From Petroclostridium xylanilyticum (lineage in GTDB: Bacteria; Bacillota; Clostridia; SK-Y3), in the NCBI RefSeq assembly GCF_002252565.1, contig NZ_NPML01000019.1:1-64000 (forward strand): a stretch of 64,000 bases of DNA, given 5' to 3'. Each line of letters starts with the position of its first letter. The stretch's first letter is position 1. A program made the position numbers and the translations under genes. Shown here piece after piece: positions 6,658 through 58,004 of this stretch. Below the pieces are notes generated by a model, which saw nothing but the letters and a program-made list of their open reading frames with translations, was not told where the DNA came from and ran no database searches.

Positions 6658-6762
6658 TTATCCCATGCGGCTTTCGGCACGTTTTATCAGAACTATGCAC
6701 TCAACGTGGAATGAGCTGCTCGGATTGATGTCTTTGGCTGTTATTTGAACCTTACGTTTGCG
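6658..6762 (-). pseudogene. C-terminal relic resembling 23S rRNA (uracil-5)-methyltransferase RlmD
   Basis: An open stretch ending at a TAA (6658-6660) codes RKRKVQITAKDI followed by FHVECIVLIKRAES. The KVQ...HVECxVL pattern is the characteristic C-terminus of RlmD/TrmA-type methyltransferases. Nothing upstream continues the gene. A second, more diverged copy lies at 10006-10077. The 3' end of this gene is a known landing site for integrative elements, so these may be left-over target ends. Confidence 0.45.
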
Positions 6763-6822
6763 GGAACATATCAATGGGTTTTTAGCATTTTTCCCGAAAA
6801 CGAACGTTCAAGGAAACAAATC

Positions 6823-6842
6823 GACCGGCGATTGCGCCGGTC
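6823..6842 (-). terminator. terminator of the first M56 operon
   Basis: GACCGGCG and CGCCGGTC pair perfectly around a 4-base loop, followed on the minus strand by a T-rich stretch. It lies 48 bases after the stop of the M56 peptidase gene. Confidence 0.65.
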
Positions 6843-6889: not shown

Positions 6890-9292
6890 TTAATTGATGT
6901 ATTGGGGATTGCTCATAGAAAACTCAATCTCGCCGCGGGAATTAAAAAGAGTCGCGTCTTTGATACCGTTTGCCTTTAAATGCTTGAATAGGTTTTCCCA
7001 CTGTAGAGTGCGTATGTCATCACGATTCCCATAATGGTCAATTATTTTATCGGCAAGCCCCGGTATTTTCTTTCCCGATACAGGCATCGTGCAGAACTTT
7101 TTGATGGATGGTTGCCAGTCTGCACCATCTTTTGCCTGCTCATATTTTTCTAGCACGTAATTACCGCTATTATCCTTTTTATAAGTAATGGCCGATGGAA
7201 CGACGCTACCACCAACCTCATCCAGCACATTGCCATATAGCTTGTAGGTTGCGCTGAAGGTGGTCACAAATACTTTTAATAGACCGTCTTCTTCATAGCT
7301 TCCGAAAATTTTTGGTGCAACTATCGTAAATCCTCGTTGAGGTTGAGAGTTCTTTTCAATTTCCGTAGCGTAAACCAGCTTTTCTATGGGATCAACACCA
7401 TCATACACATAATCGGGCAGCTTGATTTCCTGCCTGATTGACAGAGCGTCATACCATTCCTGTGGAGTGAGCGTTTCGTCGGTCACATTGTTTCGAAGTC
7501 CCAGAAGCTCCTTGCATAGCTGCATCATGATAACGCCGCGGAGACCATCAACGTTACCGCTTTCAAACTGAGACAACATATATTGCAGGGCTTTCTCTCC
7601 GCCAAACTTTTTGATATTTTCATATTCTTTCTGGTGTTCTTGAATATAGGCATTAGGATTTGAAGCTTTTTTTGGTGAGGACATTATAACAGCAAGGTTT
7701 TCTTCTACGAGTTTTGCAATCCCTTCTGTACCGGGGGTATTAATTAGGCTTGCAATTCCATCGGGGTTTTTTTCATCTATAACATCTATAAAATCATATT
7801 CCGAACAAGCGCTTTCATTTATAAGATCGCTTTGCAACTCTCCCTTGCTGTTATATACTTCTATATTTCGAATATTTGAGAGAGTATCAACTACGACAAT
7901 ATATCCTTTATCCATAGAAACCTGTTCCATGACATAAGTGCCGTCCTCAAACGTAATCTTAATAAAGTCAATTTGCACATCTGTTGCGAGGTCTGTTTGA
8001 GGATTCCATTTCTTGTTTTTAAAATTTCCGTAAACTATACTTTTCCCCTGATACTTTACAACATTTGCCGAGAAACAAGGACTTATGGGTATATCCCCTG
8101 AAGCTTTAGCCACTATATTAAAACCGCTATCTGCTAAAAATAAAACAGAAAAGCTCTCGCCTTCTCCTCTATATTTTTGAGTTAATACCAGGTAACTACT
8201 GCCAAATTTTTTTATATTATAAATCTTAAGAGTTCCCTTGTTGGCCGGATCAGCCTTCATGTAGTATTCACTGACAACATCTGTAAGTTTTCTTTTGTCT
8301 TCCTCTGAAATTGTTCCTCCTTTAGGAGGATTTGCGGCAAAAGCAATCGCAGCAGCGCAAACAGCCATAACCGCAACCACTATGACCCAAAATGCAGGTT
8401 TCTTAAAATTGACTATATTTTTTATCCTGGTCTTTACATGGCTCTCACCGAAAGCTAAAGGATTCGCTGTCAAAATTCCTTTCCTTTTGACTGACAGCGA
8501 CAGGAGTGAACTGGAATAGCCTCCCTTTGCGCCGTCACCCAACTTACTCAGCACGCTTTCATCGCAGGACATTTCCATGTCCCGGCTCATGAGCGCAAAG
8601 CACAGCCACATAAGCGGATTGAACCAGTGAAGGATGAGCGCAAGAAAAGCAAGAGGCTTGATCAGATAATCCTTCCTGCGGATATGGGTTCGCTCGTGTT
8701 CCAGTATGTAGGACAGGTTGGCATCCCCAATATTTGCAGGCACATAGATTTTCGGACGGATAAAGCCGCATACGAAGGCTGTTCCGATGGCATCAGTTTC
8801 AAAGACATCGGCCTCTACGCGGGTCGCGGTCTGAAGCTTTCCTTTGATTTTTACATAAGAAACAATACTATAAATCAGCAGCGCAATAACGCCAAAAATC
8901 CAAATAAGGCTCAAAACAGCCATCCATATTTCCATGGGATTCACGCTTGCTACCGGAATGGCGGGAGGCAGAGAAGCATTCACCGCGCTGTCAATGCTGC
9001 CAATGCCGGACTGAATCGCAGGCGTATGCATCACCCCTATATTCTGCGGTACAAGCTCATATACTCCGATTCCTTGCTTCGCATTCATGTTTATCAGATT
9101 GAAAAAACTAAAAGCTGAACCGAAAGAAAATGGGCATACTAGACGGAAAAGCACCGGTATCCAAAGAATATAGGAAAAAACCTTCGGCGCTTTTTTAAGC
9201 AGCAGGCGGACAAGAATAACACCAATAGCCACATATGAAGCGGTGATGCTCATGTTCAAAATATTTATAAATAAATCTTGCAGCAAGCTCAT
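6890..9292 (-). CDS. M56-family membrane peptidase (BlaR1-like sensor)
   Basis: 800 residues. Membrane segments at about 8-35, 40-70 and 122-148 lead into the M56 zinc peptidase with HERTH at 199-203 and the downstream Glu in RDMEMSCDE. A further membrane helix is at about 300-320. The remaining roughly 480 residues are extracytoplasmic and do not look like a penicillin-binding sensor domain, so the signal is unknown. By family logic it senses an envelope cue and triggers loss of its BlaI partner, encoded just upstream with a 4-base overlap. It is clearly paralogous to the broken gene at 10151-12096. Confidence 0.9.
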   Translation of the reverse strand: MSLLQDLFINILNMSITASYVAIGVILVRLLLKKAPKVFSYILWIPVLFRLVCPFSFGSAFSFFNLINMNAKQGIGVYELVPQNIGVMHTPAIQSGIGSIDSAVNASLPPAIPVASVNPMEIWMAVLSLIWIFGVIALLIYSIVSYVKIKGKLQTATRVEADVFETDAIGTAFVCGFIRPKIYVPANIGDANLSYILEHERTHIRRKDYLIKPLAFLALILHWFNPLMWLCFALMSRDMEMSCDESVLSKLGDGAKGGYSSSLLSLSVKRKGILTANPLAFGESHVKTRIKNIVNFKKPAFWVIVVAVMAVCAAAIAFAANPPKGGTISEEDKRKLTDVVSEYYMKADPANKGTLKIYNIKKFGSSYLVLTQKYRGEGESFSVLFLADSGFNIVAKASGDIPISPCFSANVVKYQGKSIVYGNFKNKKWNPQTDLATDVQIDFIKITFEDGTYVMEQVSMDKGYIVVVDTLSNIRNIEVYNSKGELQSDLINESACSEYDFIDVIDEKNPDGIASLINTPGTEGIAKLVEENLAVIMSSPKKASNPNAYIQEHQKEYENIKKFGGEKALQYMLSQFESGNVDGLRGVIMMQLCKELLGLRNNVTDETLTPQEWYDALSIRQEIKLPDYVYDGVDPIEKLVYATEIEKNSQPQRGFTIVAPKIFGSYEEDGLLKVFVTTFSATYKLYGNVLDEVGGSVVPSAITYKKDNSGNYVLEKYEQAKDGADWQPSIKKFCTMPVSGKKIPGLADKIIDHYGNRDDIRTLQWENLFKHLKANGIKDATLFNSRGEIEFSMSNPQYIN

Positions 9293-9648
9293 TTCACCGC
9301 CTCCTCTATAATCCGCTTCAGTTCCTCGGCCTCCTGTTCGGAAAGCTTGCGGCCGCTCAGGAAGGCAGTCAGAAATTTCGGCAGCGACCCGTCAAATGTT
9401 TTTTCCAACACAGCCCTGCTTTCATATCTCTGCACATCTTCACGCTTAACCAATGAAGTAACGGTCGCATCCTTGTTTTGCAGAATACCGCGCTCGCAAA
9501 GCTTTTTTAATACAGTGTAGGTGGTTGACTTTTTCCAGCCGAGTTTATCCGCGCACAGCTTTACAAGCTCGGTGGAATTGATCGGTTCATTGTCCCAGAT
9601 TATACTGGCAAATTTGTATTCCGCATCAAACAGCTTATATTTTTCCAT
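9289..9648 (-). CDS. BlaI/MecI-family repressor
   Basis: 119 residues: a winged helix at about 1-75 (ELVKLCADKLGWKKSTTYTVLKKLCERGIL) and a C-terminal dimer/cleavage region containing FLTAFLSGRKLSEQEAEELK. It represses its own operon until its partner M56 protease is activated. GGAGG lies before the ATG, and the stop overlaps the M56 start by four bases, a standard BlaI-BlaR1 layout. The cognate operator overlaps the -10 element just upstream. Confidence 0.92.
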   Translation of the reverse strand: MEKYKLFDAEYKFASIIWDNEPINSTELVKLCADKLGWKKSTTYTVLKKLCERGILQNKDATVTSLVKREDVQRYESRAVLEKTFDGSLPKFLTAFLSGRKLSEQEAEELKRIIEEAVK

Positions 9649-9674
9649 ATAGTTGCCTCCTTGGGTTTATTTCA

Positions 9675-9717
9675 ATAGACCTAATTAAAGTCTATCGCGT
9701 TCAACCACATATGTCAA
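9675..9717 (-). promoter_or_regulatory. promoter and BlaI operator of the first BlaI-M56 operon
   Basis: TTGACA (9712-9717) and TAGACT (9689-9694) are spaced 17 bp on the minus strand. The -10 element is itself one half of the imperfect dyad TAGAC...GTCTA (9675-9695). The same TAGACT-over-the--10 design is used by the second operon. Confidence 0.75.
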
Positions 9718-10005
9718 TAGCAAAATATGAATTAAATTGTATTTTGGCAGATCAAATTGATCTTGTTAAAGCACAAAAAGATCCAAGTTATAGAGATGTT
9801 CCCGCGAACACATCAAATTCTTTCAAACCCCGTCTTTTCCGTCATCACAACCCCACCTGCCAAAGGCAGCCCCGAAAGGCTGTGGATGTGTTTCCTCGAA
9901 CAGTTATGCAAACAAAAAAACAGGGCTTTCAGGTATCTCCACCGCCAAAAAACACATTTTCGGCGGGTGGCAAATCACCGGAAAACCCTGTATTCAAGCC
10001 GTTTT

Positions 10006-10077
10006 TCAATCTCCCCTCTGTTTTTTTACATTTTGCATCAACAATACGCACTTCACGTGATTTTGGCCATATATCTT
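10006..10077 (-). pseudogene. second RlmD-like C-terminal relic in a 430-base gene-free stretch
   Basis: The minus-strand frame ending at a TGA (10006-10008) codes QNHVKCVLLMQNVKKQRGD, a diverged version of the HVECIVLIKR tail at 6658-6762, and likewise stops right after. The surrounding stretch 9718-10150 has no credible gene; it otherwise holds a CAGCCTTTCGGGGCTG-type hairpin area near 9866-9888. Both relics lie downstream of a BlaI-M56 operon, which suggests the operon and its trailing relic were duplicated together. Confidence 0.35.
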
Positions 10078-10150
10078 TCAATTATTTCATGCTATCTCAT
10101 CCTGTCTGCAATTACCGGTTTAAATTAATGGCTTTGGGCACAAATTTTAT

Positions 10151-12096
10151 TCAATTAGCACTTAATAAATTATGAGCACCTTCAAGCGTTTTAGTCGCCT
10201 TGAAGTATAGGTTATGGATATCACCATAATCTACTTTTTCTTCCCCTTCTCCACGATATGGTACTTGTATTAAGTGTCTAGACAGATCTTGCAGTATCCT
10301 GTTCGCATCAATTATTTTTAATATGTTCCGTTCCTCAAGACCTTCACTACACAGTTTTTTTACAGCGTCAATATCTTCCTGCAAAGGCTTATAATCCACA
10401 TATTGCTCAACTCCTGATAATACAGTTACTATCCCAAATAAATTATTTTTATCATAAGCATCCCATCTTGGATGATTCTTATCAATAAGCTCAATATATC
10501 TATCATCACACACAATACCATAAAGCTGTAATGCGCTGGATTGAATGGCATAGGAAAAATTATGAATTTTGTCTTCAGGAATTTTGCTGTATATTTCCGT
10601 CCTCAAGTCATATCTTTCTTTTGGTGACATTGTAGGTTTCAATTGATATGGATCAATACTTTCCACTAATTGAATAATTTCTTCTTTTGAAAGTATATTT
10701 TTATTTTCATGATTATCTCCGACACTTTCTTCATTTAAAGTGTTAAAAACATCATCTTTCGACTTTCTGTCTTGCACATCCTTAATATTTTCTTGTATAT
10801 TTCCATTTGCATTGTATATTTTGTATATTTCAACACTCGCTGACCTGTTACTTTTATACACCCCAGCATACGGCTCTTCAATATAGTAACTGCCGCCTTT
10901 CGAATACAAATACAGCTTTCTCATCTCCTCCTCAAGAATGAGTCTTATTATGAGGTAATTCTTTTGCGTTGGAGTATCGTTTACTGATTTACGCATTGTT
11001 TTTTTCGCCCCGGATAAAGCGGACAAAACCATTTCTACATCAGTGTTGTCTCTCAAGGTTACAGATCCAACGCTCACACCCTCATTAAACTGCTCCATTT
11101 CCACAGACAAAATAGAAGTAGCATCTGGAAGGTCGAGGAACTTGGCTGGATTTGTCAACAGGAATATCGTCCCGATAGCCACTGCAAGTACTGCTACGTA
11201 TACAATCCAAAAAGCTGGCTTTTTATAGTGAAGTACATTTTTAATCCGGCTTTTCGTTGTACTTTCACCGAAAGCCAGCGGGCTTCCGGCCAGAATGGGA
11301 CGTCTTATCGCCAGCCGCAACAGGGTCTCGCCATACAGGACCTTTCCCTCGTGATCAAGTTCGCACACCACCCGTTCATCACAGCTCATCTCCATATCTC
11401 GGCTCATCAGGCAGAAGGCTAACCACATAAGTGGATTGAACCAGTGGATGGACAGGGCAAAAAATGCTAGCGGCTTGATGATATGATCCTTTCGAAGAAT
11501 ATGAGTCCGTTCGTGGAGCAAAACATATTCACGTTCCGTTTCATTGATTCCAACAGGCAAATAGATCTTCGGCTTAAAGAAACCACACACAAAAGGAGAA
11601 GATATCTCGTCGGTTTCAAAAACATTGCCGTTTAGTAGAGTTGCCGTTGAAACCCTTCTCTTGAGCCGTAGGTAGGAAACAACACTATTATGAACATAAC
11701 AACCATACCAACAAGCCAAACCCAAGTGCCGATAGATAAGAATACCTGCATTGGATTAGCGCTTGTTGTCTCCACAGCCTGAGTAATCATCGGACTAACC
11801 GTTTTGCTAAAATAGATAGCATCAGAGCGTATCTGCGGTACAACCGTAAGCCCATTGCCCTTTGAAATGTATTCAATACCCCCGCTATCTGCAATAGGCG
11901 CATTAAAAAAATTAAAAAGAGAGAAGACTGATGAAAATGAAACCGGGCAGACCAGCCGAAATAAAAGAACGCTCCAGAGCATATATGAGATCCGCTTCGG
12001 AGCTCGTCTCAACAGCAGTCGCAAGATGAGCACAGCAATGAATACATATGAAGCAGTAATGCTCATGTTGAGTATTTTCAAAAATACTTCTACCAT
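10151..12096 (-). pseudogene. second M56 (BlaR1-like) peptidase gene, frameshifted
   Basis: The first 136 codons (from the ATG at 12096) carry two membrane segments and read ...WLVGMVVMFI. The rest continues in another frame from SVVSYLRLKRR to the stop at 10151. Comparing with the intact paralogue (LLIYSIVSYVKIK) shows that one base is missing near 11687-11690, where ATATATAG has become ATAATAG. The peptidase motif HERTH, the RDMEMSCDE glutamate and the C-terminal sensor part are otherwise intact. The C-terminal region differs from the first paralogue. Recent pseudogene, phase variation or a sequencing error are all possible. Confidence 0.85.
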
Positions 12097-12464
12097 TACT
12101 TTTGCCTCCTGTACTCATCGATAATCTGCTTAATTTGTTCTGCCTCGTTATCGCTGATTTTTTCCTCTCCTAAAAAAGCTGCAATAAATTTCGGCAATGA
12201 ACCTTCAAAAACCCGGCTTATAACCTGACGGCTTTCAACTGCCTGAATGTGTTCACGCTTAATTTTCGAAGTGACAATTGTACTCTCATTCTGCAAAACT
12301 CCCTTGTCGCAGAGTCGCTTTAATACGGTGTAGGTTGTAGTTCGTTTCCAGCCAAGCTGTGTTTCCGTCAGCTTGCACAACTCGGGTGAAGCAATAGGCT
12401 CCGAATCCCATACAATCGAAAGCAAACGGTAATCCGCATTACTGAGCTTCAGTTCTTTTTCCAT
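12096..12464 (-). CDS. BlaI/MecI-family repressor (second copy)
   Basis: 122 residues, about half identical to the BlaI at 9289-9648, with the winged helix ELCKLTETQLGWKRTTTYTVLKRLCDKGVL and tail FIAAFLGEEKISDNEAEQIK. It overlaps the start of the frameshifted M56 gene by one base. GGAGGT lies before the ATG, immediately next to the operator. With the M56 partner broken, this repressor may hold its operon permanently off. Confidence 0.9.
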   Translation of the reverse strand: MEKELKLSNADYRLLSIVWDSEPIASPELCKLTETQLGWKRTTTYTVLKRLCDKGVLQNESTIVTSKIKREHIQAVESRQVISRVFEGSLPKFIAAFLGEEKISDNEAEQIKQIIDEYRRQK

Positions 12465-12598: not shown

Positions 12599-13339
12599 CT
12601 AATCTTGTATTACTTTCTTGCATTCAGAATTAATTATACATTCGTTGCAATTAGGATTACTCGGCCTGCACCAAGTACGTCCAATCTCCCAGCATGAAAA
12701 ATCTATTATCCCAGGAAACTCAGGATTTAGCTCTCTTGCCTTATAGATAATTGAATCTAAATCAGCGTTACTGTCAACCAAACCTGTCCTTCGCATTACT
12801 CTTAAAATATGTACGTCTGGGGATATGTCAATTGAGTAATAATCAGAAAACGGGATTTTAAATTGCCTGGCAAGAATATTAGCTGCCATTGTGGCAATTT
12901 TCTTTCCGCTTCCTTTAAACTGCAAAAATTCATAAACCACTTTTGCGCTGCTGGGATTATTACTCCATATTAGCGAAGCATCCCCATTATACTTCACTTT
13001 AATATCCTGAACTGCGGAATAAAACACTTCTGCCATTATATCGTTAAATCTATGTAATATATTCCTATTAAAAATATTCTTGTACTCTTCTAGCGAAACA
13101 CTAGCTAAATCATCAATATTAAAGCTTCCTACAATTTCCTTTATTTTAAAAGGGATTGACCATGCCCGCTCTGCTTTAATCTGCCTATCCATCAAGCAGG
13201 CTAAAACAAAAGCATGAGGCGTGTTTTCAATATCGTTAAGAAATTTATCTTGTTCTGTGTTATTAACAAAAGGAATAAAATGTCTCTCAGAATCGCTAAA
13301 TCGAGCTTTTCCTATTGTTACAAGTAAATGTTCCGGCAT
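12599..13339 (-). CDS. endonuclease III-like DNA glycosylase with [4Fe-4S] motif
   Basis: 246 residues. The helix-hairpin-helix with the catalytic lysine reads FKGSGKKIATMAANIL, and the catalytic aspartate follows in ISPDVHILRVMRRTG. The C-terminus ends in C-x6-C-x2-C-x5-C, the exact endonuclease III cluster spacing. It should excise damaged bases and act on DNA in the cytoplasm; base specificity is unknown. An ATG at 13354 is in frame, but the ATG at 13339 has AGGTG eight bases upstream and is preferred. It stands alone. Confidence 0.8.
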   Translation of the reverse strand: MPEHLLVTIGKARFSDSERHFIPFVNNTEQDKFLNDIENTPHAFVLACLMDRQIKAERAWSIPFKIKEIVGSFNIDDLASVSLEEYKNIFNRNILHRFNDIMAEVFYSAVQDIKVKYNGDASLIWSNNPSSAKVVYEFLQFKGSGKKIATMAANILARQFKIPFSDYYSIDISPDVHILRVMRRTGLVDSNADLDSIIYKARELNPEFPGIIDFSCWEIGRTWCRPSNPNCNECIINSECKKVIQD

Positions 13340-13446
13340 ATTTATCACCTTCATCTCTTTTTATCATCTTGTTGACTCTATTTGATAAGGAATTAAATTC
13401 CGCCTTCTGTTTGCTTGATGAATAGCTCTTTTATTAATCAATCGCT

Positions 13447-13920
13447 TTACTCGATACTGCTCATTATCTCTTTCATGCTGTCGATTAAATAGTCCTTTTC
13501 AGGATCTGATACCTCGTTGTTTCCTTGTAGGCTGGCAATATAGGATTTAATAATATCTTTGGATTTTACAAAGTTAATGTTTCCAGGTAAATTGCTGAGT
13601 ATCAATTGAGCATCTATAAACGCGCCCATACTATTAATAACTTGATTCATTAATTTTTCTGCCTGTTCGATATTCCCATTTTTCATTGCTTCTTTTGCAG
13701 AAATACTAAGGCTACGAATGTCTTCTCCCCATATTGCATATCTAGATGGAGTTGCCTTGCAGTCTTCATCGCATGAGTCAAAAATCGCTCTTTCTAACCT
13801 GACCATGAACATGCTTTCACTGTCGTGTTCTTTTACTCTCGTGATTACTACGGGAGTATTTTTGTTGTTAAAATTATAAAAATCTATTACAGCTCGCATC
13901 AATGATTGTATTTGAGCCAA
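13447..13920 (-). CDS. hypothetical protein
   Basis: 157 residues, acidic, mostly helical in its second half (IRSLSISAKEAMKNGNIEQA). There is no signal peptide, membrane helix or motif I recognise. The start is a TTG with AAAGGG upstream. It lies 92 bases after the small Cys-rich gene on the same strand, so it may be the third gene of the operon led by the HARE-HTH protein. Codon use is like its neighbours. Confidence 0.6.
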   Translation of the reverse strand: MAQIQSLMRAVIDFYNFNNKNTPVVITRVKEHDSESMFMVRLERAIFDSCDEDCKATPSRYAIWGEDIRSLSISAKEAMKNGNIEQAEKLMNQVINSMGAFIDAQLILSNLPGNINFVKSKDIIKSYIASLQGNNEVSDPEKDYLIDSMKEIMSSIE

Positions 13921-14032: not shown

Positions 14033-14200
14033 CTATTTTTCATGTATACTACATTTAAATTCATCACAATATCCTAAACCATCATCAAATTCCTCAATCT
14101 TTCCCTTTGTGCAGCATTTAGGTACACCATTTTCGTCATGTTCACAAAACCAGCAAAAATCGCAAATTGGATCACAAACGGGGTCATTACAGATATACAT
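14033..14200 (-). CDS. 55-residue cysteine-rich peptide
   Basis: From the ATG at 14200 the frame gives 55 residues with nine cysteines (positions 4, 9, 13, 16, 19, 29, 30, 45, 50), beginning MYICNDPVCDPICDFCWFC. The spacing resembles a small metal-binding (zinc or iron-sulfur) fold, and no signal peptide is present. GGAGG sits inside the end of the upstream HARE-HTH gene, whose stop is only one base before this ATG, so the two are translationally coupled. No family is recognised. Confidence 0.7.
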   Translation of the reverse strand: MYICNDPVCDPICDFCWFCEHDENGVPKCCTKGKIEEFDDGLGYCDEFKCSIHEK

Positions 14201-14201
14201 T

Positions 14202-14606
14202 CTAATCCTCCTTCAGTTTTATGTAGTTTCCCGGCAGTGCTTCAAACATATCCGGGTAATGCCCGCATCTTGCCCTTATCTGTGTATATTCCGCTTTACT
14301 GCCATCCTTTTTTAAATACATCCTACGCCTATATATCTCATCGGCAAGTTCAGCTGCATGCATCGTTTTGTTTTCTGCCTCTGATAAGACAATTCGCATG
14401 GCTTCATGAAGCGTATAATTAGGCATTTCTTGCATGCCCATTTCTGTATCAGCTAAACTATTTTCATCATATTTTAAGATTATATAAGCTGGCTTATTAT
14501 CTTTAAGCAGAACAACTTTTCCGTTCTTCTCAACAACAGAAAACACATGGTCTATATTGTTTTTTAATGAATCAAAGGGAATTAAGCTGTCTATTCTAAT
14601 ATCCAT
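14202..14606 (-). CDS. Phd-like N-domain fused to HARE-HTH domain
   Basis: 134 residues. Residues 1-55 resemble a Phd/YefM-type antitoxin fold (FDSLKNNIDHVFSVVEKNGKVVLLKDNKPAYIILKYDE), which dimerises and binds operator DNA. Residues 62-134 match the HARE-HTH winged helix (YTLHEAMRIVLSEAENKTMHA...DEIYRRRMYL...TQIRARCGHYPDMFEALPGNYIKL) known from HB1/ASXL/restriction-linked proteins. It has a strong ribosome site and its own promoter with three iterons. It is likely an autoregulator; the downstream Cys-rich peptide is its closest partner. Confidence 0.75.
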   Translation of the reverse strand: MDIRIDSLIPFDSLKNNIDHVFSVVEKNGKVVLLKDNKPAYIILKYDENSLADTEMGMQEMPNYTLHEAMRIVLSEAENKTMHAAELADEIYRRRMYLKKDGSKAEYTQIRARCGHYPDMFEALPGNYIKLKED

Positions 14607-14625
14607 AATTCACCACCTCATCACA

Positions 14626-14675
14626 ATTATATATGCAAATTATTTATTTGTCTATATATTTGTTTATATATTTGT
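14626..14675 (-). promoter_or_regulatory. promoter with three 12-bp iterons before the HARE-HTH gene
   Basis: On the minus strand ACAAATATATAA, ACAAATATATAG and ACAAATAAATAA lie head to tail (14640-14675). TAGACA (14649-14654) and TATAAT (14626-14631), 17 bp apart, form the promoter, and the -35 lies within the iterons. Binding there would block or recruit polymerase, so autoregulation is likely. Confidence 0.7.
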
Positions 14676-14686
14676 ATAAAGCAAAA

Positions 14687-14726
14687 TGCCGCCAATTAAG
14701 AAGGGTTTCCTCCTCAACTGGCGGCA
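14687..14726 (-). terminator. terminator after the recombinase module
   Basis: TGCCGCCAATTAAG and CTCAACTGGCGGCA pair with one mismatch or wobble, followed on the minus strand by TTTTGCTTT. It follows the recombinase stop at 14741 by 15 bases and marks the approximate edge of the prophage. Confidence 0.75.
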
Positions 14727-14740
14727 ATCTTTTTGAAATC

Positions 14741-16309
14741 CTATAGTTTCACTTCTAATTCCAACCCCGACTTAAACTCAACCACTATCCTGTCACCATA
14801 TACAGTCGCTTTTTCAACCAGTTTTCTAACCAGTTTATCATCGAACTCCGTAATATCACCGGTTTGCGTGTTAAGGAAGTCTGTCATCTCAGCAATCCTA
14901 TCCCTCTTATCTTGGCGGAGAGCGTTTCTTGAAAGTGTTTCTTGCTTTAAATCTCGTAACCGGTAAATCTCATTGACAATATTATCGTATGCTCCCTTTG
15001 AATTTGCCTTTTGAATTAATTCTGTTTGGAGTTCTTCCAGCCTTTTATCAATATCTACCGTACTCTCATCCAAATCCTCGCTTAATACGGTTTTAATATT
15101 CTTTTTCAGTATAGCCAGAAAAGAGTTTTTCCCGCTGACCGCTACATTTATGGCTTTTACAATCTTCTCTTTTAGCGTATCTTCGAGTATAGTGGAAGCG
15201 GTACAAAACAAACCAGTGTTTTCCAATCGGCTGACGCATCTCCATACGATTGATTTCTTCCCTCGGTTATTCCAATGAACCCTGCGAAATATTTCATGAC
15301 AGTTACCGCAGAAAACCATCTGTGATAAAGGATGATTATTGCTATAGTTTCTCTTCTTTCCATTCTTACTTATATGCACACATCTTCTTCTGACAAGCTG
15401 TTCCTGAACTTGCATAAAAATTTCACGCGGAATTATGGGTTCATGACTGTTTTCTACATAGTATTGTGGAACTATACCATTATTGGGTACCCTTTTCTTT
15501 GATAAAAAATCTACTGTATAGGTTTTCTGCAACAATGCATCACCGATATACTTTTCATTCCTCAAAATCTTATTGATGGTGCTGGTATGCCATCTTGGAT
15601 TGCCTGCACCAGTCAGTATTCCATCAGCTTCCAGGCCCCTTGCTATCTGCAGCATGCTGGAACCTTCAAGGTATTCTTTGTAAATGCGTTTGACGATTTC
15701 AGCTTCTTCTGGCACGATAACTAAATTGCCATCCTTATCCTTTGTATAGCCAAGAAACCGGTTGTGATTAATATGGATTTTTCCTTGCTGATATCGGTAT
15801 TGAATACCCAGTTTTACATTCTGGCTTAACGATTGGCTTTCTTGCTGCGCTAAAGATGCCATAATGGTCAACAGAATTTCCCCTTTTGAATCCAGCGTGT
15901 TTATATTTTCCTTTTCAAAGTAAACCGGAATATTTTTTTCTTTAAGCTGCCTTATGTACTTTAGGCAGTCCAGCGTATTTCTTGCAAACCGGCTAATAGA
16001 TTTTGTAATTATCATATCGATTTTACCCTGCATGCATTCTTCTATCATTCGGTTAAACTCTTCACGCTTTTTCGTATTGGTTCCGGTAATACCTTCATCC
16101 GCAAATATACCGGCTAACTCCCATTCGGGATTGCTTTTAATGTAGTTTGTGTAATGCTCAATCTGTGCTTCATAACTGGTTGCCTGCTCCTCGCTGTCCG
16201 TAGATACGCGGCAATAGGCTGCTACCCGAAGCTTAGGCAATTCCTCAGCCTTTGCACTATTCCCAATCGGTTTACGAGCAGGAATTACCGTAACATTCCT
16301 CGTTGTCAT
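14741..16309 (-). CDS. large serine recombinase
   Basis: 522 residues: a resolvase catalytic domain (about 27-170) with nucleophile S36 in YCRVSTDS, a Recombinase domain (about 185-290), a zinc-ribbon (FCGNCHEIF...WRC...C) at about 333-370 and a C-terminal coiled coil. It would integrate or excise the prophage by double-strand strand exchange. It is the last of three overlapping recombinase genes (38-base overlap with the one upstream). Its stop is followed by a strong terminator. Confidence 0.93.
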
Positions 16310-16730
16310 CTAAAATCACCTCGCTCTTAATAAGACTATAAGCATACTCTGCCTGCTGAAATGGATCGTCGTATAGTTTATCTGGCATTGAAGCATGAAA
16401 CTTAAAATTCAGGCATTTCTTTTCATTTCCCTTGTGTTCATAAATCCTGCCAAGCGCCTCAGCTCGCCTGCGCCTTTCCAATTGTGCTTCTTCGAATATG
16501 TCCCTGTTGATAATAGGCGGATAGAATTTATCCTCAACATACCGTTTATCTTTCAGCATTCTTGCAATAGATGTGTGGTAGCGCTTAATACCCGCTTTTT
16601 TGGCCGCCTCGGTTAAAGAAAGCCCGGAAAGATAAGCCTCAAATAGTTCCTTAATCTTAAGCGCTTCCTTTTCATTAACGACAGCCCTGCCGTTTTGAAT
16701 GGAATATCCAAAAGGTATATGGCTCAACAT
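16272..16730 (-). CDS. recombinase-domain protein lacking the catalytic domain
   Basis: 152 residues. It matches only the middle Recombinase (DNA-binding) domain of large serine recombinases: [30 protein letters not shown], then a helix-turn-helix-like [22 protein letters not shown]. There is no Ser nucleophile region. It overlaps both neighbours (7 and 38 bases), so it is co-translated with them and probably acts as an accessory factor. The same three-gene set is known in other clostridial elements. Confidence 0.85.
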
Positions 16731-18304
16731 CTCACCAACCTTTCCCTAAGGTTCAACCCGCATTTCATTTTTAAACCTATTTCCTCCTGTGAAAACACAA
16801 TGATTTCTTCAATAAAGTCCTCAAATATTTCGCTGTCAAATGCATCAATCTGCTTTTCAGCCTTCGATGTAAATTTAAGAAGCTTCTCAACCTCAACAAG
16901 GATAGTCTGACTCCCATTGATTGCGCGGTTTATGGCTTCTTTTTGTTCTTTTAATAAGGCTGCTTCCTTGCTCAACTCGTTTTTTTGTGTATTAAAAAGA
17001 GCGGGTTCCAGATATCCTTTGGCCATAAGTCCCATAATAACCTGAACCCGCTCTGTATTTTCTTTGATTTTAGTTTCCAACTCCTGAATCTTCGCTATAT
17101 TATCTGAGTAATTTGTTTTCTTTAAGCTTTGTAGCAATGGTCTTAGAATGAACTTATGACCGAAAATAAGCTTATTGATCATCACAACAAAGGCCTGATG
17201 GATCGTATCCTCCCTAATAAACTTCATTGAACAAGACGAAGCGTCCTTTATATGCTTTGTGCAGCACCAAGCAATATATTTACGGTCACCACTTCCATGA
17301 ATTCGACGCTTAAAACTGCTGCCACATTCTGCGCATTTGATTTTCCCAGAGAAAGGGTAGCGTTTTTGATACTTGCTGCTTCCCTTGATTACACCTTTTT
17401 CTTTTCCTCTTTGCTTTAATATCTCTTGGGCGGCTTCAAATTCCTCATGGGATATAATGGCTTCATGATGATCTTTTATCATGTATTGATCTTTTTCCCC
17501 ACGATTATAATGCCGCTTAAAATTTTCATCTGTATAGGTCTTTTGCAAAATGACATCCCCAGTATATTTTTCATTGCTTAAAATGCCACGGATAGTGGTC
17601 GCTGTCCAATGTGAACCTCTCTTTGTGAGGATTTTATCTAAATTTAATCCATCTGCAATTTTCTGTGTGCCTTTACCAGCCAAAGCCTCAGAAAAAATTC
17701 GCTTTACAATTTCAGCTTGTTCTTTATTGATAAATAGCTTTCCATCCGCATAATCGTAGCCATAGGGAGGATATGAAATCTTGTATGTTCCGTTTTGAAA
17801 CCTGCGCCTGATAGACCATTTACTATTCTCAGCAATGGATAGGGATTCGTTTTCCGCAAGGCTGCTCAGAATTGTCAGCACTAATTCGCCTTCCATGCGC
17901 TGCGTATTTATATTCTCTTTCTCGAAATAGATGAAAACACCGAGATCGGTAAGTTTTCGCACCATTTCAATGCAGTCGGTTGTGTTTCTGGCAAATCTGC
18001 TGACTGACTTGGTTATAATAAAGTCAATCCTCTTGTTTTCACAATCTGCAAGCAGTCTTAAAAGTCCAGTTCGGTTTTCCTTTTTTGTGCCTGAAATGCC
18101 TTCATCATAATAAATCCCTGCAAATTCCCAATCAGGATTTGCTTTTATATGGGATTCATAATGGCTCTTTTGTGCTTCCAGGCTTGCCATTTGTTCATCA
18201 CTGTCGGTTGAAACCCTGCAATAAGCCGCTACCCTCACCTTTGGCTTGAAAGCTTGAAGAGCATTGTTCCCATCAATCCTCGTTACCTTTCCCACTGTTT
18301 TCAC
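16724..18304 (-). CDS. large serine recombinase (second)
   Basis: 526 residues, clearly paralogous to the recombinase at 14741. The nucleophile is S32 in YCRVSTDS, the Recombinase domain lies at about 180-290, the zinc ribbon (KCAECGSSF) is near 345, and a coiled coil is at about 400-460. The ATG has a good ribosome site (AAGGAGGTG). It begins the three-gene recombinase set, 52 bases after the small SHOCT-like gene. Two complete recombinases may serve integration and excision or form a mixed complex. Confidence 0.93.
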   Translation of the reverse strand: MKTVGKVTRIDGNNALQAFKPKVRVAAYCRVSTDSDEQMASLEAQKSHYESHIKANPDWEFAGIYYDEGISGTKKENRTGLLRLLADCENKRIDFIITKSVSRFARNTTDCIEMVRKLTDLGVFIYFEKENINTQRMEGELVLTILSSLAENESLSIAENSKWSIRRRFQNGTYKISYPPYGYDYADGKLFINKEQAEIVKRIFSEALAGKGTQKIADGLNLDKILTKRGSHWTATTIRGILSNEKYTGDVILQKTYTDENFKRHYNRGEKDQYMIKDHHEAIISHEEFEAAQEILKQRGKEKGVIKGSSKYQKRYPFSGKIKCAECGSSFKRRIHGSGDRKYIAWCCTKHIKDASSCSMKFIREDTIHQAFVVMINKLIFGHKFILRPLLQSLKKTNYSDNIAKIQELETKIKENTERVQVIMGLMAKGYLEPALFNTQKNELSKEAALLKEQKEAINRAINGSQTILVEVEKLLKFTSKAEKQIDAFDSEIFEDFIEEIIVFSQEEIGLKMKCGLNLRERLVRC

Positions 18305-18356: not shown

Positions 18357-18575
18357 TTAAGCCATAAGCTGTGCATACATTGGCGAGAAAGTTTTGCGGT
18401 TCAACTTGTCGATTTTGTTGAATTCTTCCTCTGAAATCAGTCCTGCTTTAAGCATCCTCTGCAGAATTTTGTATGCCCGCCAGTAATCAACCTCTCTTTG
18501 AAGTTCTTCCTGTGTTATCTTTGTATGGTTAATGTCCTGCGGGCTATATGATATATGATTAGCCGCCTCAATCAT
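18357..18575 (-). CDS. small SHOCT-like protein
   Basis: 72 residues. The C-terminal half (YKILQRMLKAGLISEEEFNKIDKLN) is the short SHOCT helix pair, which mediates oligomer contacts. Genes of this size directly upstream of recombinase sets are frequent in clostridial elements. It has AGGTGC before the ATG and probably shares the recombinase transcript. Exact function unknown. Confidence 0.75.
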   Translation of the reverse strand: MIEAANHISYSPQDINHTKITQEELQREVDYWRAYKILQRMLKAGLISEEEFNKIDKLNRKTFSPMYAQLMA

Positions 18576-18599
18576 CCAAGCACCTCCTATAAAAACTTA

Positions 18600-18621
18600 G
18601 GACAGCCTTGTTTGGCTGTCC
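18600..18621 (-). terminator. terminator after the endolysin gene
   Basis: GGACAGCC and GGCTGTCC pair perfectly around a 6-base loop and are followed by TAAGTTTTT on the minus strand. It separates the lysis genes from the recombinase module. Confidence 0.85.
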
Positions 18622-18628
18622 TTTATCG

Positions 18629-19633
18629 TTATTCCGGCAATTTCAAAACTTGTCCAGGATAAATAGTATCTGAAGTCAGGCCATTAAGTTTCTTAATCTC
18701 CGGGTATCTTGTTCCTCTGCCGAGTTCTTTTTCCGCTATTCTCCATAAGTTGTCGCCTTTTTGCACTGTATAGGTTCTATTGCTCTTGTTATCAGGAATG
18801 CTGTTTACAATTACAAGGTTTTCTTTTGCTACCCAAGTATTTATGCCTGCAATTTCTTGACCGCCAGATTTCTTAACCTTTTTGCCAAGCAAAACACATT
18901 CTTTGCCGCCTTTTACAACCGGCTTTCCTCCATATAAAGTCTGCGTAACCCTGTGGTAATAGTCATTTTTGACCCACAATGGAATTGCCACACTGCCGGG
19001 GGAGTAGTTTTTTGCGCTGTCCTTAAACTCCACCAGGTCGCCAATTCCAATATCCGTATTGTTATCTGTGTTGTTCTCCAGTGCTTTTTTCACTGCTTTG
19101 CGGAAGGTGTCCATACTCTCCCCATGTTTGGGGAACCAGTGCATCACATCAGCATGGTTGCTGGCAATACCCAGCTTATACCCTTCGCAGTGGCAGATGA
19201 TATCATTCTCATCAAGACCGTACTCCCTGCAGAGCATAACACAGAGTTCAACCGCATTCTGCCATGCTTTGCGGAAATAATCTTCCTGCTTTGCTGCATC
19301 ATAACCCACCATTACCGAGCCGGATTTATACGAAAACCCGGCAGGCTCACAGATTTCAAAGCCAATATGGGTATTGTTGGCTGCGCCTCCTGCATGCCAC
19401 CCGCGATGATCCCAAGGCAGGTATTGCCAAACCTCTTTATCGTCTACAAAGGCGTGAACACAGACCTGCCTGTTTATTTCACCGGCTTTGTAAGACTTAT
19501 TCCAGAGGGAAAACCAGTCGGCCGCCATTACGCCCGGCACAGCCGTCGAATGTACCATGATTCCTTTAGGCGTGATTTTCCGACCGGCCGTATAGCAATC
19601 GTTTCGCGTCATGTATTTGGTAAAAAGCTTCAT
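18629..19633 (-). CDS. endolysin: N-acetylmuramoyl-L-alanine amidase with LysM
   Basis: 334 residues. An Amidase_2 zinc domain occupies about 1-185 (GIMVHSTAVPG with the first His; HRGWHAGG; CHCEGYKLGIASNHADVMHWF with the other ligands). A middle SH3-like segment (about 195-275) and a C-terminal LysM repeat (TYTVQKGDNLWRIAEKELG to IYPGQVLKLPE, about 288-332) bind peptidoglycan. It cleaves the cell wall at phage release. The start overlaps the holin stop by four bases. There is no signal peptide, so the holin must give access to the wall. Confidence 0.93.
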   Translation of the reverse strand: MKLFTKYMTRNDCYTAGRKITPKGIMVHSTAVPGVMAADWFSLWNKSYKAGEINRQVCVHAFVDDKEVWQYLPWDHRGWHAGGAANNTHIGFEICEPAGFSYKSGSVMVGYDAAKQEDYFRKAWQNAVELCVMLCREYGLDENDIICHCEGYKLGIASNHADVMHWFPKHGESMDTFRKAVKKALENNTDNNTDIGIGDLVEFKDSAKNYSPGSVAIPLWVKNDYYHRVTQTLYGGKPVVKGGKECVLLGKKVKKSGGQEIAGINTWVAKENLVIVNSIPDNKSNRTYTVQKGDNLWRIAEKELGRGTRYPEIKKLNGLTSDTIYPGQVLKLPE

Positions 19634-20049
19634 TTCTTTTCATCCTCCTCATTTGAGCGGCCATGTAGTTGTTCCAATGCGTTCTTCAGCTTTTCAGGAA
19701 TGGGCAGTCCTATATGTGCTGCATTCTCAAGAATTGAAATACCCTCGTTGCTTAGGTAAAAGAAAATCACCGCCGTCCGGATTGCCCCGCCGTTACCGAG
19801 AACTTGACTGTCAATAATATGTCCCACACCCACCAACACAAAAATGAGCACTTTCTTGAAGATGCCCTTGGCCCCGACTTCACTTGAAAGCTTCCTGTCC
19901 GCAATCGCGCACATCACGCCGGTCAGGTAGTCGATAGCCACAAAGGCGATCAGCGCATACAGAAATCCATCCAGCCCGCCAAGAAACCAGCCAAGGAAAC
20001 CGCCGATAGTAGTAAAAACCGCTTGTACCCAGTTCCATACCGTTTTCAT
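19630..20049 (-). CDS. phage holin (phage_holin_4 / TcdE-type)
   Basis: 139 residues from the ATG at 20049, which has GGAGG nine bases upstream; 12 further codons upstream are in frame but unlikely to be used. Several hydrophobic segments are visible (FLGWFLGGLDGFLYALIAFVAIDYL, then VLIFVLVGVGHIID and AVIFFYLSNEGISILENAA), the usual pattern of this holin family. It forms membrane lesions that let out the amidase, whose gene overlaps its stop by four bases. Confidence 0.9.
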   Translation of the reverse strand: MKTVWNWVQAVFTTIGGFLGWFLGGLDGFLYALIAFVAIDYLTGVMCAIADRKLSSEVGAKGIFKKVLIFVLVGVGHIIDSQVLGNGGAIRTAVIFFYLSNEGISILENAAHIGLPIPEKLKNALEQLHGRSNEEDEKK

Positions 20050-20083
20050 TTTCTTAAACCTCCGTTTCTTGAATTTTGCATAC

Positions 20084-20114
20084 AAAAAAGCGCCCTGCCT
20101 TTAAGCAAAGCGCT
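20084..20114 (-). terminator. terminator between tail and lysis genes
   Basis: AGCGCCCTGC (20089-20098) pairs with GCAAAGCGCT (20105-20114), with two G-U pairs, and is followed by six T on the minus strand. It lies between the GH18 tail gene and the holin and may be read through for late expression. Confidence 0.8.
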
Positions 20115-49076: not shown

Positions 49077-50990
49077 ATCGAGTAGAAGCTGAATAATTAT
49101 TTTATTCAGCGTCCTCTCACACCACCGTACGTACCGTTCGGTATACGGCGGTTCATTAAGATTTAATGTACAATTAGATACCTCTTTGATAAACTCTTGT
49201 AACCTATGTCTTCGAAGTATTTATTTGTAAGAGTCATATTGAGTATTTGGCTATTGGATATTCTCCAGTAGCCTTTTCTCGTATTAGCGTATATCCAGGC
49301 TTTCTGTTTTTCTAATCCTAATTTTACTAGATTATCGTATTTTGTTTTTATCTTCTTCCATTGTTTCCATATACATGCTCTTAGTCTACGCCTTATCCAT
49401 TCGTCAAGGGCTTTCATTATTCTTTTCGCATCTGCTAATCCAAAGTAGTTAACCCATCCTGTCGTTATCTGATTCAATCTACGTATTCTATATTCCATAC
49501 TTATTCCCTTGTTTCGATTGGTTATTTCTCTTACTTTTTCCTTAAGCCTTTTGATGGATTTTTCATGGATTCTTATTCTTACTTCGTTTTCTTTTGTGTA
49601 AAACGAGAATCCTAAGAACTTTCTTTTCCATGGTCTATCTACAGCACTTTTTGCTTCATTGACTTTTAGTTTTAATTTGGTTTCTATGAATTTCTTTATG
49701 CTTTTCATTACTCTGTTTCCTGCTGACCTGCTTTTTACGTATATGTTGCAATCATCTGCATACCGACAGAATTTATGCCCTCTTCTTTCTAGTTCTTTGT
49801 CTAGTTCATCTAACATTATGTTTGCTAATAGCGGACTTAATGGCCCTCCTTGTGGTGTCCCTTCTTCTGTTGCTACTTTGATTCCATTTATCATTACTCC
49901 TGATTCTAAGTATCTTCGTATCAGCTTCAGTACTCTTTTGTCTCCTATCCGCTTTTCTAATTTAGTCATCAGTATGTCGTGGTTTACTCTGTCAAAGAAC
50001 TTTTCTAAGTCTATATCTACTACCCATGTGCATCCTTCGTTTATATATACTTCTGCGGCTGTTACTGCATCTTTTGCACTGCGTCCTGGTCTGAATCCAT
50101 AGCTATTTTCCGAGAATGTATGGTCGTATATTCCACTTAGTATTTGGGCTATTGCTTGTTGTATTAGTCTGTCTAGTACTGTAGGTATTCCTAGTAGTCT
50201 TGTTCCTCCATCTGGTTTTGGTATTTCTACTCTCAGCACTGGTTGTGGTTTATACTTTCCTTCCAGTAATTGTTGCTTTATGGTCGGCCAGTTTTCTTTG
50301 AGATACGGTAGAAGTTCATCTACTTCCATCCCATCGACTCCATGGCTTCCTTTATTTGCAACTACTCGCTTGTATGCTTCTTTCATGTTTTCTCGGTCTA
50401 GTATCATTTCAAGCAGATTACTGGTGTATCTTTGTACATTGTTTCTTCTATCTTTTGACGCCGATGATATACTATGCACTTCCGCTGTCTCTTGAAATTC
50501 CATTTCTTGATTGAGCGGATAGCCTCTTTGTTGAGTTGTCTGCAGTCTTTGCATATCTTTCGAGTTCATAAGATTTCCAAAACCTCCTAATGTTCGGTCC
50601 TTCCTTATCTATTCATGACTAGATAAGTACTATGACCTCTGCTGACTTCTCAAGGTTCAGCCATACATCACTGTATGGGTTGTCATTTCGGAGTTCACTT
50701 TAATGACTCGTCCTTGAGACCTCCCCGGGTAAGAACGATAACCTTCATCTCGTCTATCTGCCAGATTTACTGTATGGAGTTCGGGTAGTGTTGGACTTCG
50801 TTTTGTTTAGCAAACTCGTCCGCCCCAATTCAGCCTCTTATCTGGTTTTTGTTCATCAGACCGAGATTTTGCCTACCACTTCCTTCAGATTCCACCTCGC
50901 GATGGACACCCTTGCGGTTCAGCTAGTGGTTCCCACTACCAAGCCCACAGCGGACTTTCACCGCCTAGTTATCGCCCATGCCGGGCGCAC
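49077..50990 (-). mobile_element. group IIC intron 2 (intact)
   Basis: The 5' end GTGCGCCCGGCATGGGCG is at 50990. Domain V (GAACCGCCGTATACC ... GTACGGTGG) and domain VI (CTGAATAAAATAATTATTCAG) precede the end CTACTCGAT at 49077. The intron encodes an uninterrupted maturase. It starts directly after a terminator stem and its T-run (50991-51014), the standard target of class C introns. Confidence 0.9.
49163..50569 (-). CDS. ltrA: group IIC intron reverse transcriptase/maturase
   Basis: 468 residues. The reverse transcriptase fingers and palm contain IDLEKFFDRVNHD and the catalytic FCRYADDCNIYV. A maturase (X) domain follows (IRRLNQITTGWVNYFGLADA, RIRRRLRACIWKQWKKIKTK). There is no C-terminal HNH endonuclease, as is typical for class C, which uses terminator stems as targets. 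It stabilises splicing and drives retrohoming. It might also act on the related intron 1, whose own maturase is dead. Confidence 0.95.
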   Translation of the reverse strand: MNSKDMQRLQTTQQRGYPLNQEMEFQETAEVHSISSASKDRRNNVQRYTSNLLEMILDRENMKEAYKRVVANKGSHGVDGMEVDELLPYLKENWPTIKQQLLEGKYKPQPVLRVEIPKPDGGTRLLGIPTVLDRLIQQAIAQILSGIYDHTFSENSYGFRPGRSAKDAVTAAEVYINEGCTWVVDIDLEKFFDRVNHDILMTKLEKRIGDKRVLKLIRRYLESGVMINGIKVATEEGTPQGGPLSPLLANIMLDELDKELERRGHKFCRYADDCNIYVKSRSAGNRVMKSIKKFIETKLKLKVNEAKSAVDRPWKRKFLGFSFYTKENEVRIRIHEKSIKRLKEKVREITNRNKGISMEYRIRRLNQITTGWVNYFGLADAKRIMKALDEWIRRRLRACIWKQWKKIKTKYDNLVKLGLEKQKAWIYANTRKGYWRISNSQILNMTLTNKYFEDIGYKSLSKRYLIVH

Positions 50991-52108: not shown

Positions 52109-52139
52109 AAGGCGTCCTCCTTTCAAACTTTCTGATTGA

Positions 52140-57954: not shown

Positions 57955-57981
57955 CCCTTTTAGTTGTCTACACTAAAAGGG
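57955..57981 (+). promoter_or_regulatory. hairpin before istA in IS21 copy 2
   Basis: CCCTTTTAGT and ACTAAAAGGG pair around 7 bases, 24 bases upstream of the istA start. It lies where outside transcripts would enter the element and may limit read-through expression. Confidence 0.5.
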
Positions 57982-58004
57982 GGGTATTAGAAAGGATGCT
58001 AACA

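What the first reader, a model, noticed from the sequence alone, without database searches (positions are those of the whole stretch)
14033..14675. Iteron-controlled Phd-like/HARE-HTH fusion with a nine-cysteine peptide
A protein joining an antitoxin-like N-domain to a HARE-HTH domain is translationally coupled (one base between stop and start) to a 55-residue peptide with nine cysteines. Three perfect-period 12-bp iterons overlap the -35 box. HARE-HTH is known from restriction and chromatin-linked proteins; its pairing with a metal-binding-like peptide under iteron control next to a prophage edge looks like a small undescribed regulatory or defence module.
Basis: partly seen in the sequence, partly recalled or inferred. 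Interest (0 to 1): 0.66.

Follow-up and report, generated by a model that had tools for sequence, protein, structure and literature searches.

The report
Regulator gene heading swappable prophage cargo
At one end of a virus genome lodged in a bacterial chromosome sits a small gene made from half of an antitoxin joined to a second DNA-binding domain; related viruses carry the same gene with its repeat-marked promoter, but behind it they swap in different sets of genes, many resembling anti-virus defences, so it looks like the control switch and joining point of an exchangeable cargo slot.

Summary
The sequence observation is right: a 134-aa Phd-like + HARE/winged-helix protein (14202-14606, minus), one base before a 55-aa nine-Cys ORF, with 12-bp repeats across the -35 box. 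The pairing with the Cys peptide is not the essence: it occurs in 2 of 43 unique homologous loci. The same position is otherwise taken by a 102-109-aa family, a 69-aa family, or cargo directly. The gene is the first one after a terminator that ends a triplet of large serine recombinases in an rlmD-site prophage. Its 12-bp repeats occur upstream of it in 21 of 43 loci and nowhere else on its strand in 548 kb of those loci. Downstream lies a 4-8 kb cargo slot closed by an rlmD-3'-like sequence. Prophages with 82-100% identical upstream DNA carry unrelated cargo, and identical cargo sits behind unrelated DNA; one crossover is pinned to 27 nt inside this gene. Cargo includes GmrSD, Druantia-, Mokosh-, PsyrT/DpdF-like proteins. 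A true Phd-Doc pair with the same N-domain is in the same genome. Best reading: an autoregulatory, antitoxin-derived repressor that governs exchangeable, often defensive, cargo. Regulation and sensing are inferred. A recombination directionality factor is the main rival.

The parts
14202..14606 (-). 134-aa two-domain regulator: Phd-type N-domain (about aa 1-50) and HARE/winged-helix C-domain (about aa 63-134)
14641..14675 (-). three 12-bp direct repeats (core ACAAATNTAT), presumed operator
14626..14654 (-). promoter TAGACA-17-TATAAT; -35 box inside the third repeat
14687..14726 (-). strong terminator-like hairpin between the last recombinase and this operon
   Evidence: 18 pairs;
14033..14200 (-). 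55-aa nine-cysteine peptide, translationally coupled; one of several alternative second genes
13447..13920 (-). cargo ORF c9, 157 aa, no family; kept with the glycosylase in 4 loci
12599..13354 (-). cargo: endonuclease III-like HhH-GPD DNA glycosylase with Fe-S loop spacing C-X6-C-X2-C-X5-C
   Evidence: TIGR03252 E=1.1e-16, under cut-off; Fe-S spacing read from sequence, its meaning recalled
14741..16309 (-). large serine recombinase 3 of the triplet (Resolvase, Recombinase, Zn ribbon)
16272..16730 (-). short middle member of the triplet (Recombinase domain only), also short in related loci
16724..18304 (-). large serine recombinase 1 of the triplet
18357..20085 (-). conserved prophage genes before the triplet: holin-like (19630-20085, by eye), amidase-LysM, SHOCT
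6681..6827 (-). about 150-bp rlmD-3'-end-like sequence closing the cargo slot (putative attachment-site remnant)
9970..10052 (-). partial second copy of that sequence (77% over 83 nt), possible scar of an older insertion

Best explanation
It is an autoregulatory transcription factor at the head of an exchangeable cargo slot in a serine-recombinase prophage that integrates at the 3' end of rlmD. Its N-domain is the DNA-binding half of a Phd-type antitoxin; the toxin-neutralising tail has been replaced by a HARE/winged-helix domain. Shown: conserved position after the recombinase triplet and its terminator; repeats across the -35 box kept with the gene; cargo replaced between this gene and the rlmD-like end; crossover inside this gene. 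Inferred: dimers bind the 12-bp repeats side by side and repress the operon, setting a low level of partner and cargo proteins; the HARE domain binds a ligand, a partner or altered (for example modified) phage DNA, which loosens repression and raises cargo expression. Because the gene and its promoter stay constant while the cargo changes, its conserved 3' end also serves as the homology joint for cargo exchange. In this window the cargo is the Cys peptide, an unknown 157-aa protein, an EndoIII-like glycosylase and two BlaI/BlaR1-like pairs.
For: Repeats: 21 of 43 unique loci score >=21/27 upstream of the gene on its strand, one more (L027) on the other strand at -40, none elsewhere in 548,361 bp; kept down to 56-57% protein identity (L010, L035, L176). 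In L018, L020 and L081 the repeats stand 1.4-3.0 kb upstream, before NUDIX- and HNH-like genes inserted between promoter and gene, so it is an operon promoter. A terminator before the promoter separates it from the recombinases. Next gene starts -4 to +16 nt from the stop in 21 of 43. Cargo swap: of 153 pairs among 18 loci, 23 same upstream/different cargo, 3 the reverse, 4 both same. L185 follows L183 up to +338 and L020 from +365; the L185/L020 match runs only from the gene's start to the rlmD-like end. Defence-like cargo: 12 of 30 cargo proteins tested hit PADLOC at E<=1e-10, 0 of 10 comparison proteins at 1e-5. Phd: same-genome relative (38% over 48 aa) overlaps a Fic/Doc gene, E=3e-18. 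Parallel: in related phages an RHH-like protein (by eye) with its own repeats fills the slot, followed by GmrSD in two.
Against: No binding, expression or phage test exists. 21 of 43 loci lack a scoring repeat array, and some sit by ordinary genes (ABC transporter L026/L029, CsoR-like L188, AraC-like L189; by eye). The window's own cargo gives no PADLOC match (Cys peptide not tested; families c9 and c6 tested through L016, BlaR1). The 30 cargo proteins were chosen by me, larger ones first; the 10 comparison proteins were not matched for helicases, which match PADLOC broadly. 39 of 80 related recombinase loci have another first gene, so this regulator is optional. Pfam scores are under cut-off.
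Confidence: 0.6

Rival explanations
1. It is the recombination directionality factor or another control protein of the serine recombinase triplet: it binds DNA near the att site and drives excision.
For: Recombinase upstream within 7 kb in 23 of 43 unique loci, with the last recombinase ending 135-154 bp away in 15. Small DNA-binding proteins next to serine integrases are a usual place for such factors (recalled).
Against: Terminator and own promoter separate it. In L018 and L081 cargo lies between recombinase and gene. Homologues lie in phage tail gene clusters (L178-L181, by eye) and in loci without a recombinase in the flank held. The slot is filled by unrelated proteins in related recombinase loci. 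Its own crossover with cargo ties it to both sides.
Confidence: 0.15
2. It is a promiscuous antitoxin: the Phd-type protein neutralises whichever small coupled partner follows (Cys peptide, c2 or c16 family) as a toxin.
For: Phd-type N-domain, autoregulatory repeats, overlap coupling and partner swapping are toxin-antitoxin habits; a promiscuous antitoxin domain is known (PMC10440598, abstract seen in listing).
Against: The similarity to Phd stops at about residue 56 in the standalone relatives; the toxin-binding tail is absent. Partners show no toxin family. 16 of 43 loci have other next genes and in 7 none was found.
Confidence: 0.12
3. It is a structural part of each downstream defence system (a DNA-sensing adaptor with a HARE domain) and not a regulator.
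For: HARE-HTH is fused to nucleases and proposed to read modified DNA (PMC10853773, passages); a close C-domain is fused to DUF6884 in L057.
Against: Near-identical copies of one protein stand before many unrelated systems, and its promoter repeats are conserved with it.
Confidence: 0.08
4. It is a passive conserved joint or remnant with no present function in the cargo.
For: It is the crossover point; truncated or frameshifted copies exist (L011, L012, L036, L038, L059).
Against: Protein conserved at 55-92% to the window copy with 35 invariant columns in 21 rows and 17 synonymous to 11 non-synonymous changes against Fonticella.
Confidence: 0.05

Closest known systems
BrxR/CapW WYL-domain regulators of phage defence (PMC9122601 abstract and section headings; PMC9122589 and PMC9122588 listing only)
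   Same: Small multi-domain DNA-binding protein next to many unrelated defence systems; BrxR is a shown repressor; about half of BrxR homologues lie by defence systems
   Different: No WYL domain; Phd + HARE architecture; direct 12-bp repeats (a BrxR section heading speaks of inverted repeats); tied to a serine-recombinase prophage slot; Firmicutes
Phd of Phd-Doc
   Same: N-domain sequence and fold; a relative 38% identical sits before a Fic/Doc gene in the same genome
   Different: Toxin-neutralising C-terminus replaced by HARE/winged helix; no Doc beside it
HARE-HTH domains of restriction proteins
   Same: C-domain matches the family weakly and folds as a winged helix; a relative is fused to DUF6884
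   Different: Here joined to an antitoxin N-domain in a stand-alone regulator-like protein
Triplet serine integrases of streptococcal ICEs (PMC4701971, passages)
   Same: Three tandem co-oriented recombinases, genes between triplet and target gene in some
   Different: There triplets enter mutT, traG or hsdM and single serine integrases enter rumA; here a triplet in prophages at rlmD (rumA)
rlmD-flanked prophage phiEr670 (PMC12785378, passages)
   Same: Prophage flanked by rlmD, serine recombinase
   Different: The passages seen mention no such regulator; that genome was not tested here by name
Promiscuous antitoxin domain network (PMC10440598, abstract in listing)
   Same: One antitoxin-type domain with exchangeable neighbours
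   Different: Neighbours here are whole defence-like operons, and the small partners show no toxin family

Membership tests
Phd/YefM antitoxin | Phd-type DNA-binding N-domain | tested here: met
   PF02604 best E=1.1e-4, 5 of 21 members, single score under cut-off; 38% to a standalone Phd; Foldseek lists P1 Phd, prob 0.82-0.90 at E 0.24-0.31
Phd/YefM antitoxin | C-terminal toxin-binding segment | tested here: not met
   similarity ends near residue 56; the rest is a HARE/winged-helix domain
Phd/YefM antitoxin | cognate toxin gene adjacent | tested here: not met
   no toxin family in the window neighbours or in the partner proteins tested
HARE-HTH domain | matches the family profile | tested here: inconclusive
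   15 of 21 members E<=0.01, best 1e-4; the window protein scores 19.5 bits against a cut-off of 25.9
HARE-HTH domain | winged-helix fold | tested here: met
   model pLDDT 83; C-domain aligns to many winged helices, Z about 8, a middling value
BrxR/CapW | WYL domain | tested here: not met
   no WYL match in Pfam for the window protein (E up to 1) or in 21 members (E up to 0.01)
BrxR/CapW | binds its operator and represses the operon | not testable with these tools
   needs gel shift and reporter
BrxR/CapW | co-localises with diverse defence systems | tested here: met
   12 of 30 cargo proteins at PADLOC E<=1e-10; 0 of 10 comparison proteins
Serine-integrase RDF | flips integrase directionality | not testable with these tools
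   needs recombination assay
Serine-integrase RDF | always with its integrase | tested here: inconclusive
   23 of 43 loci have the recombinase upstream within 7 kb; many of the other 20 have short or cut flanks
Plasmid iteron system | Rep initiator binding iterons at an origin | tested here: not met
   the repeats sit on a promoter; no Rep in the neighbours scanned
Triplet serine-integrase element | three tandem co-oriented serine recombinase genes | tested here: met
   14741-18304; same order in related loci

The most novel reading that the evidence does not exclude
The gene is the fixed socket of a plug-in immunity system carried by prophages: one constant, antitoxin-derived sensor-repressor with its iteron promoter stays in place while whole defence cassettes are exchanged behind it by recombination through the gene's own 3' end and the rlmD-like end, so that each new cassette is at once under the same phage-sensing (perhaps modified-DNA-sensing) control.
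Probability: 0.25. Interest if true: 0.82.

Novelty: new variant of a known kind. Interest (0 to 1): 0.62.

Why it matters
How bacteria and prophages keep ever-changing defence genes under safe control is open; few general regulators are known. A constant regulator plus promoter that doubles as the crossover point would explain how new cassettes are expressed correctly at once, gives a search handle for unknown defence genes (whatever lies between this gene and the rlmD-like end), and shows how an antitoxin half can become a regulator.

Tried and rejected
Cys peptide as a conserved partner: rejected (2 of 43 loci). A false ORF on the opposite strand (cluster c7) shared by six loci turned out to be the rlmD-3'-like sequence, not a gene; no Rfam family fits and there is no tRNA in the window. 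The first cluster c1 wrongly merged recombinases with Schlafen-AlbA proteins; separated by Pfam. Sequence search of solved structures with the family profile gave nothing credible; glycosylase and 69-aa partner gave none. The model of the RHH-like counterpart failed (pLDDT 38.5), so no claim is made on its C-domain; its RHH label is by eye (no Pfam match). BrxR-type WYL domain sought and not found. In the fold comparison one winged-helix domain fills the list, so families absent there are not excluded.

The rlmD link rests on the reading frame (DMFP...HVEC, by eye against the rlmD tail) and on the strand and order of the two genes. BLASTN between the window's own rlmD tail and the window found no significant match, and the nhmmer model did not hit the region around the intact rlmD, which counts against a simple recent attL/attR pair there. 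The nhmmer model was built from 10 loci, so most of its best hits match by construction; outside the training set it hits L018, L036, L038, L147 and others. The repeat score and its threshold of 21/27 were set by me after seeing several upstream regions. In the per-locus test, which used the simpler ACAAAT core, 12-bp arrays scored 16-18 of 18 in 14 of 30 upstream regions and were at or near chance level in others (for example L018, L020, L030, L040).

Literature: searches listed no description of this gene; 'HARE-type' with 'prophage' gave 0 papers. The library lacks most subscription papers, so this is not proof of absence.

Full report
OBSERVATION. The ORFs, the one-base gap, the nine cysteines and the 12-bp repeats are as described. 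The promoter TAGACA-17-TATAAT (11 of 12) has its -35 box inside the third repeat, and an 18-pair hairpin terminator stands just upstream of it, after the last recombinase gene. In the window only this array scores 20 or more of 27 in a scan for three units of ACAAATNTAT.

PROTEIN. Pfam gives PhdYefM over residues 9-49 (E=0.0034) and HARE-HTH over 65-106 (E=0.0013), both below the curated cut-offs. Over 21 aligned relatives, 15 hit HARE-HTH and 5 hit PhdYefM at E<=0.01. The AlphaFold model (pLDDT 83) has a strand-helix-helix-strand-strand N-part and a winged-helix C-part, joined by a floppy stretch at 52-60. Foldseek finds no match at E<=0.001, but P1 Phd chains (prob 0.82-0.90 at E 0.24-0.31) and winged helices are among its best rows; VIA-align gives winged helices at Z about 8, middling. 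The same genome holds two copies of an 80-aa protein that is 38% identical over the N-domain, hits PhdYefM at 1.7e-6 and overlaps a 124-aa Fic/Doc gene, E=3e-18. So the N-domain is that of a Phd antitoxin; the part that would hold a toxin has been replaced. Elsewhere a close C-domain is fused to DUF6884 (L057).

DISTRIBUTION. Relatives occur in 12 of 391 genomes of the class, the window's own included, 24 loci of genome contigs from many Firmicutes genera, 12 and 18 viral-contig loci by two searches, no phage record and one partial plasmid match. With the family profile, 33 of 398 genomes of the phylum match, but most of those matches are standalone Phd-type N-domains. I reduced 80 full-length matches (of 90 matches in all) to 43 unique loci by identity of the gene plus 60 bp; rows that were partial or cut by contig ends were dropped before that.

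PLACE. In 23 of 43 unique loci a recombinase like the window's lies within 7 kb upstream; in 15 it ends 135-154 bp before the gene, in 6 at 389-534 bp, in 2 further away because other genes intervene. The usual order is holin-like, amidase, SHOCT, triplet of serine recombinases (long, short, long), this gene, variable genes. Triplets are known from streptococcal ICEs (PMC4701971, passages) and rlmD-flanked prophages are known (PMC12785378, passages). In all 5 genomes of 11 where rlmD and this gene are on one contig, the gene lies on rlmD's strand and 2-82 kb downstream of it (G504 2 kb, G365 20 kb, G458 45 kb, G277 64 kb, G000 82 kb); in the other 6 they are on different contigs. A sequence of about 150 bp whose frame reads like the end of RlmD lies 4-8 kb downstream in 12 of 43 loci, same strand; in the window at 6681-6827. 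Direct comparison with the intact rlmD end of this genome was negative, so I call it a putative attachment-site remnant. The stretch next to rlmD in the window's contig also holds a tyrosine-recombinase-like gene end (by eye), so the island looks composite.

OPERATOR. Of 43 loci, 21 have the repeat array on the gene's strand upstream; L027 has one on the other strand at -40; 21 have none by this score; no other hit occurs in 548,361 bp. Arrays persist at 56-57% protein identity. In L018, L020 and L081 the array is 1.4-3.0 kb upstream of the gene, with NUDIX- and HNH-like genes (by eye) between; the promoter block of L017 (-121 to +4) matches L018 at -1493 to -1371. So the array is the head of an operon.

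SECOND GENE. The next gene with a plausible ribosome site starts -4 to +16 nt from the stop in 21 of 43 loci. Partners over all distances: c2 family 10, c16 family 8, Cys peptide 2, others 16, none found 7. c16 is PHROG 27283, unknown function. The Cys peptide has one relative, in Fonticella, with 6 synonymous and 2 non-synonymous changes.

CARGO SWAP. Among 18 loci with this setting (153 pairs), 23 pairs share the upstream DNA (>=80%) and differ in cargo (<60%), 3 differ upstream (<65%) and share cargo (>=80%), 4 share both. Mosaic L185 (genome G458) agrees with L183 at 238 of 242 informative sites up to +338 and with L020 at all 138 informative sites from +365; the switch lies in 27 nt that encode the conserved RCGHYPDMFEAL region. 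The L185/L020 match starts at the gene and stops at the rlmD-like end; L185/L183 match up to +382 and then only at that end. The other trios tested are less clean (L018, L183, L166, L171, L021).

WHAT THE CARGO IS. PADLOC hits at E<=1e-10 in 12 of 30 cargo proteins: HEC-06/GmrSD (L042, L020), HEC-05 (L049), MkoA-like (L022), DruE-like (L021), PDC-S39 (L040), PDC-S60 (L016), DpdF/PsyrT helicases (L041, L183, L054), mad3 (L189), BnzB (L045). L041 and L183 hold the same helicase, so these are 11 kinds of protein at most. These are partial-system matches: I did not test complete systems. None of 10 comparison proteins hit at 1e-5. The window's cargo is an EndoIII-like glycosylase, which recurs in further loci (7), a 157-aa unknown, the Cys peptide, and BlaI/BlaR1-like genes (by eye).

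PARALLEL. Of 80 viral loci with a related recombinase, 6 carry this gene, 35 end within 700 bp, 39 have another first gene. In one group it is a 170-175-aa RHH-like protein (by eye) with its own repeats over the -35 region (by eye), followed within -4 to +2 nt by GmrSD in L195 and L196, and elsewhere by other genes. XRE-like (by eye) and DUF1413 proteins occupy it in others. A DNA-binding protein at the head of cargo is thus a recurrent arrangement.

MECHANISM. Shown: position, operator conservation, coupling, cargo exchange, domain make-up. Inferred: repression by side-by-side binding to the 12-bp repeats, and relief through the HARE domain. BrxR, a shown repressor whose homologues lie near defence systems in about half of cases (PMC9122601, abstract), works in the way proposed but is a different family. 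HARE-HTH has been proposed to read modified DNA (PMC10853773, passages), which makes a sensing role testable. Rivals: directionality factor, promiscuous antitoxin, adaptor, passive joint; scored above.

VERDICT. Regulation of defence cargo is the best-supported reading at 0.6.

Noticed in passing
G000:C27:5320 and C27:82049 (L002, L003): Two copies of a Phd-Doc pair (80 aa + 124-aa Fic/Doc) with identical proteins and the same surroundings upstream but different sequence after the toxin gene; looks like a mobile toxin-antitoxin unit.
   Followed up: partly
window 51110-52550 minus: Protein with an MqsA-like start and a DUF4065/PanA-like C-part (by eye) behind a 136-aa ORF: possible toxin-antitoxin or defence pair inside the prophage.
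   Followed up: no
window 49163-50569 minus: Group II intron-type reverse transcriptase (by eye) inside the prophage late/packaging region.
   Followed up: no
window 57930-60220 plus: IS21-like transposase and ATPase pair (by eye) inserted in the prophage.
   Followed up: no
L127, L195, L196, L198 and relatives: RHH-like 170-175-aa protein with its own short repeats over the -35 box in the same slot, followed by GmrSD or a 251-252-aa unknown; no Pfam match and a very conserved C-half.
   Followed up: partly
window 12599-13354; L016, L017, L018, L186: EndoIII-like glycosylase recurring as cargo in several genera, in L186 beside a 1606-aa AAA/STAND-type ATPase; candidate base-excision defence enzyme.
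   Followed up: partly
L178-L181: Divergent homologues of the regulator sit between tail genes and a tape-measure-like gene (by eye) in other phages, two of them with the 69-aa c16 partner.
   Followed up: no
window 6890-12464 minus: Two BlaI/BlaR1-like pairs (by eye), one BlaR1 apparently broken into two frames, between the glycosylase and the rlmD-like end.
   Followed up: no
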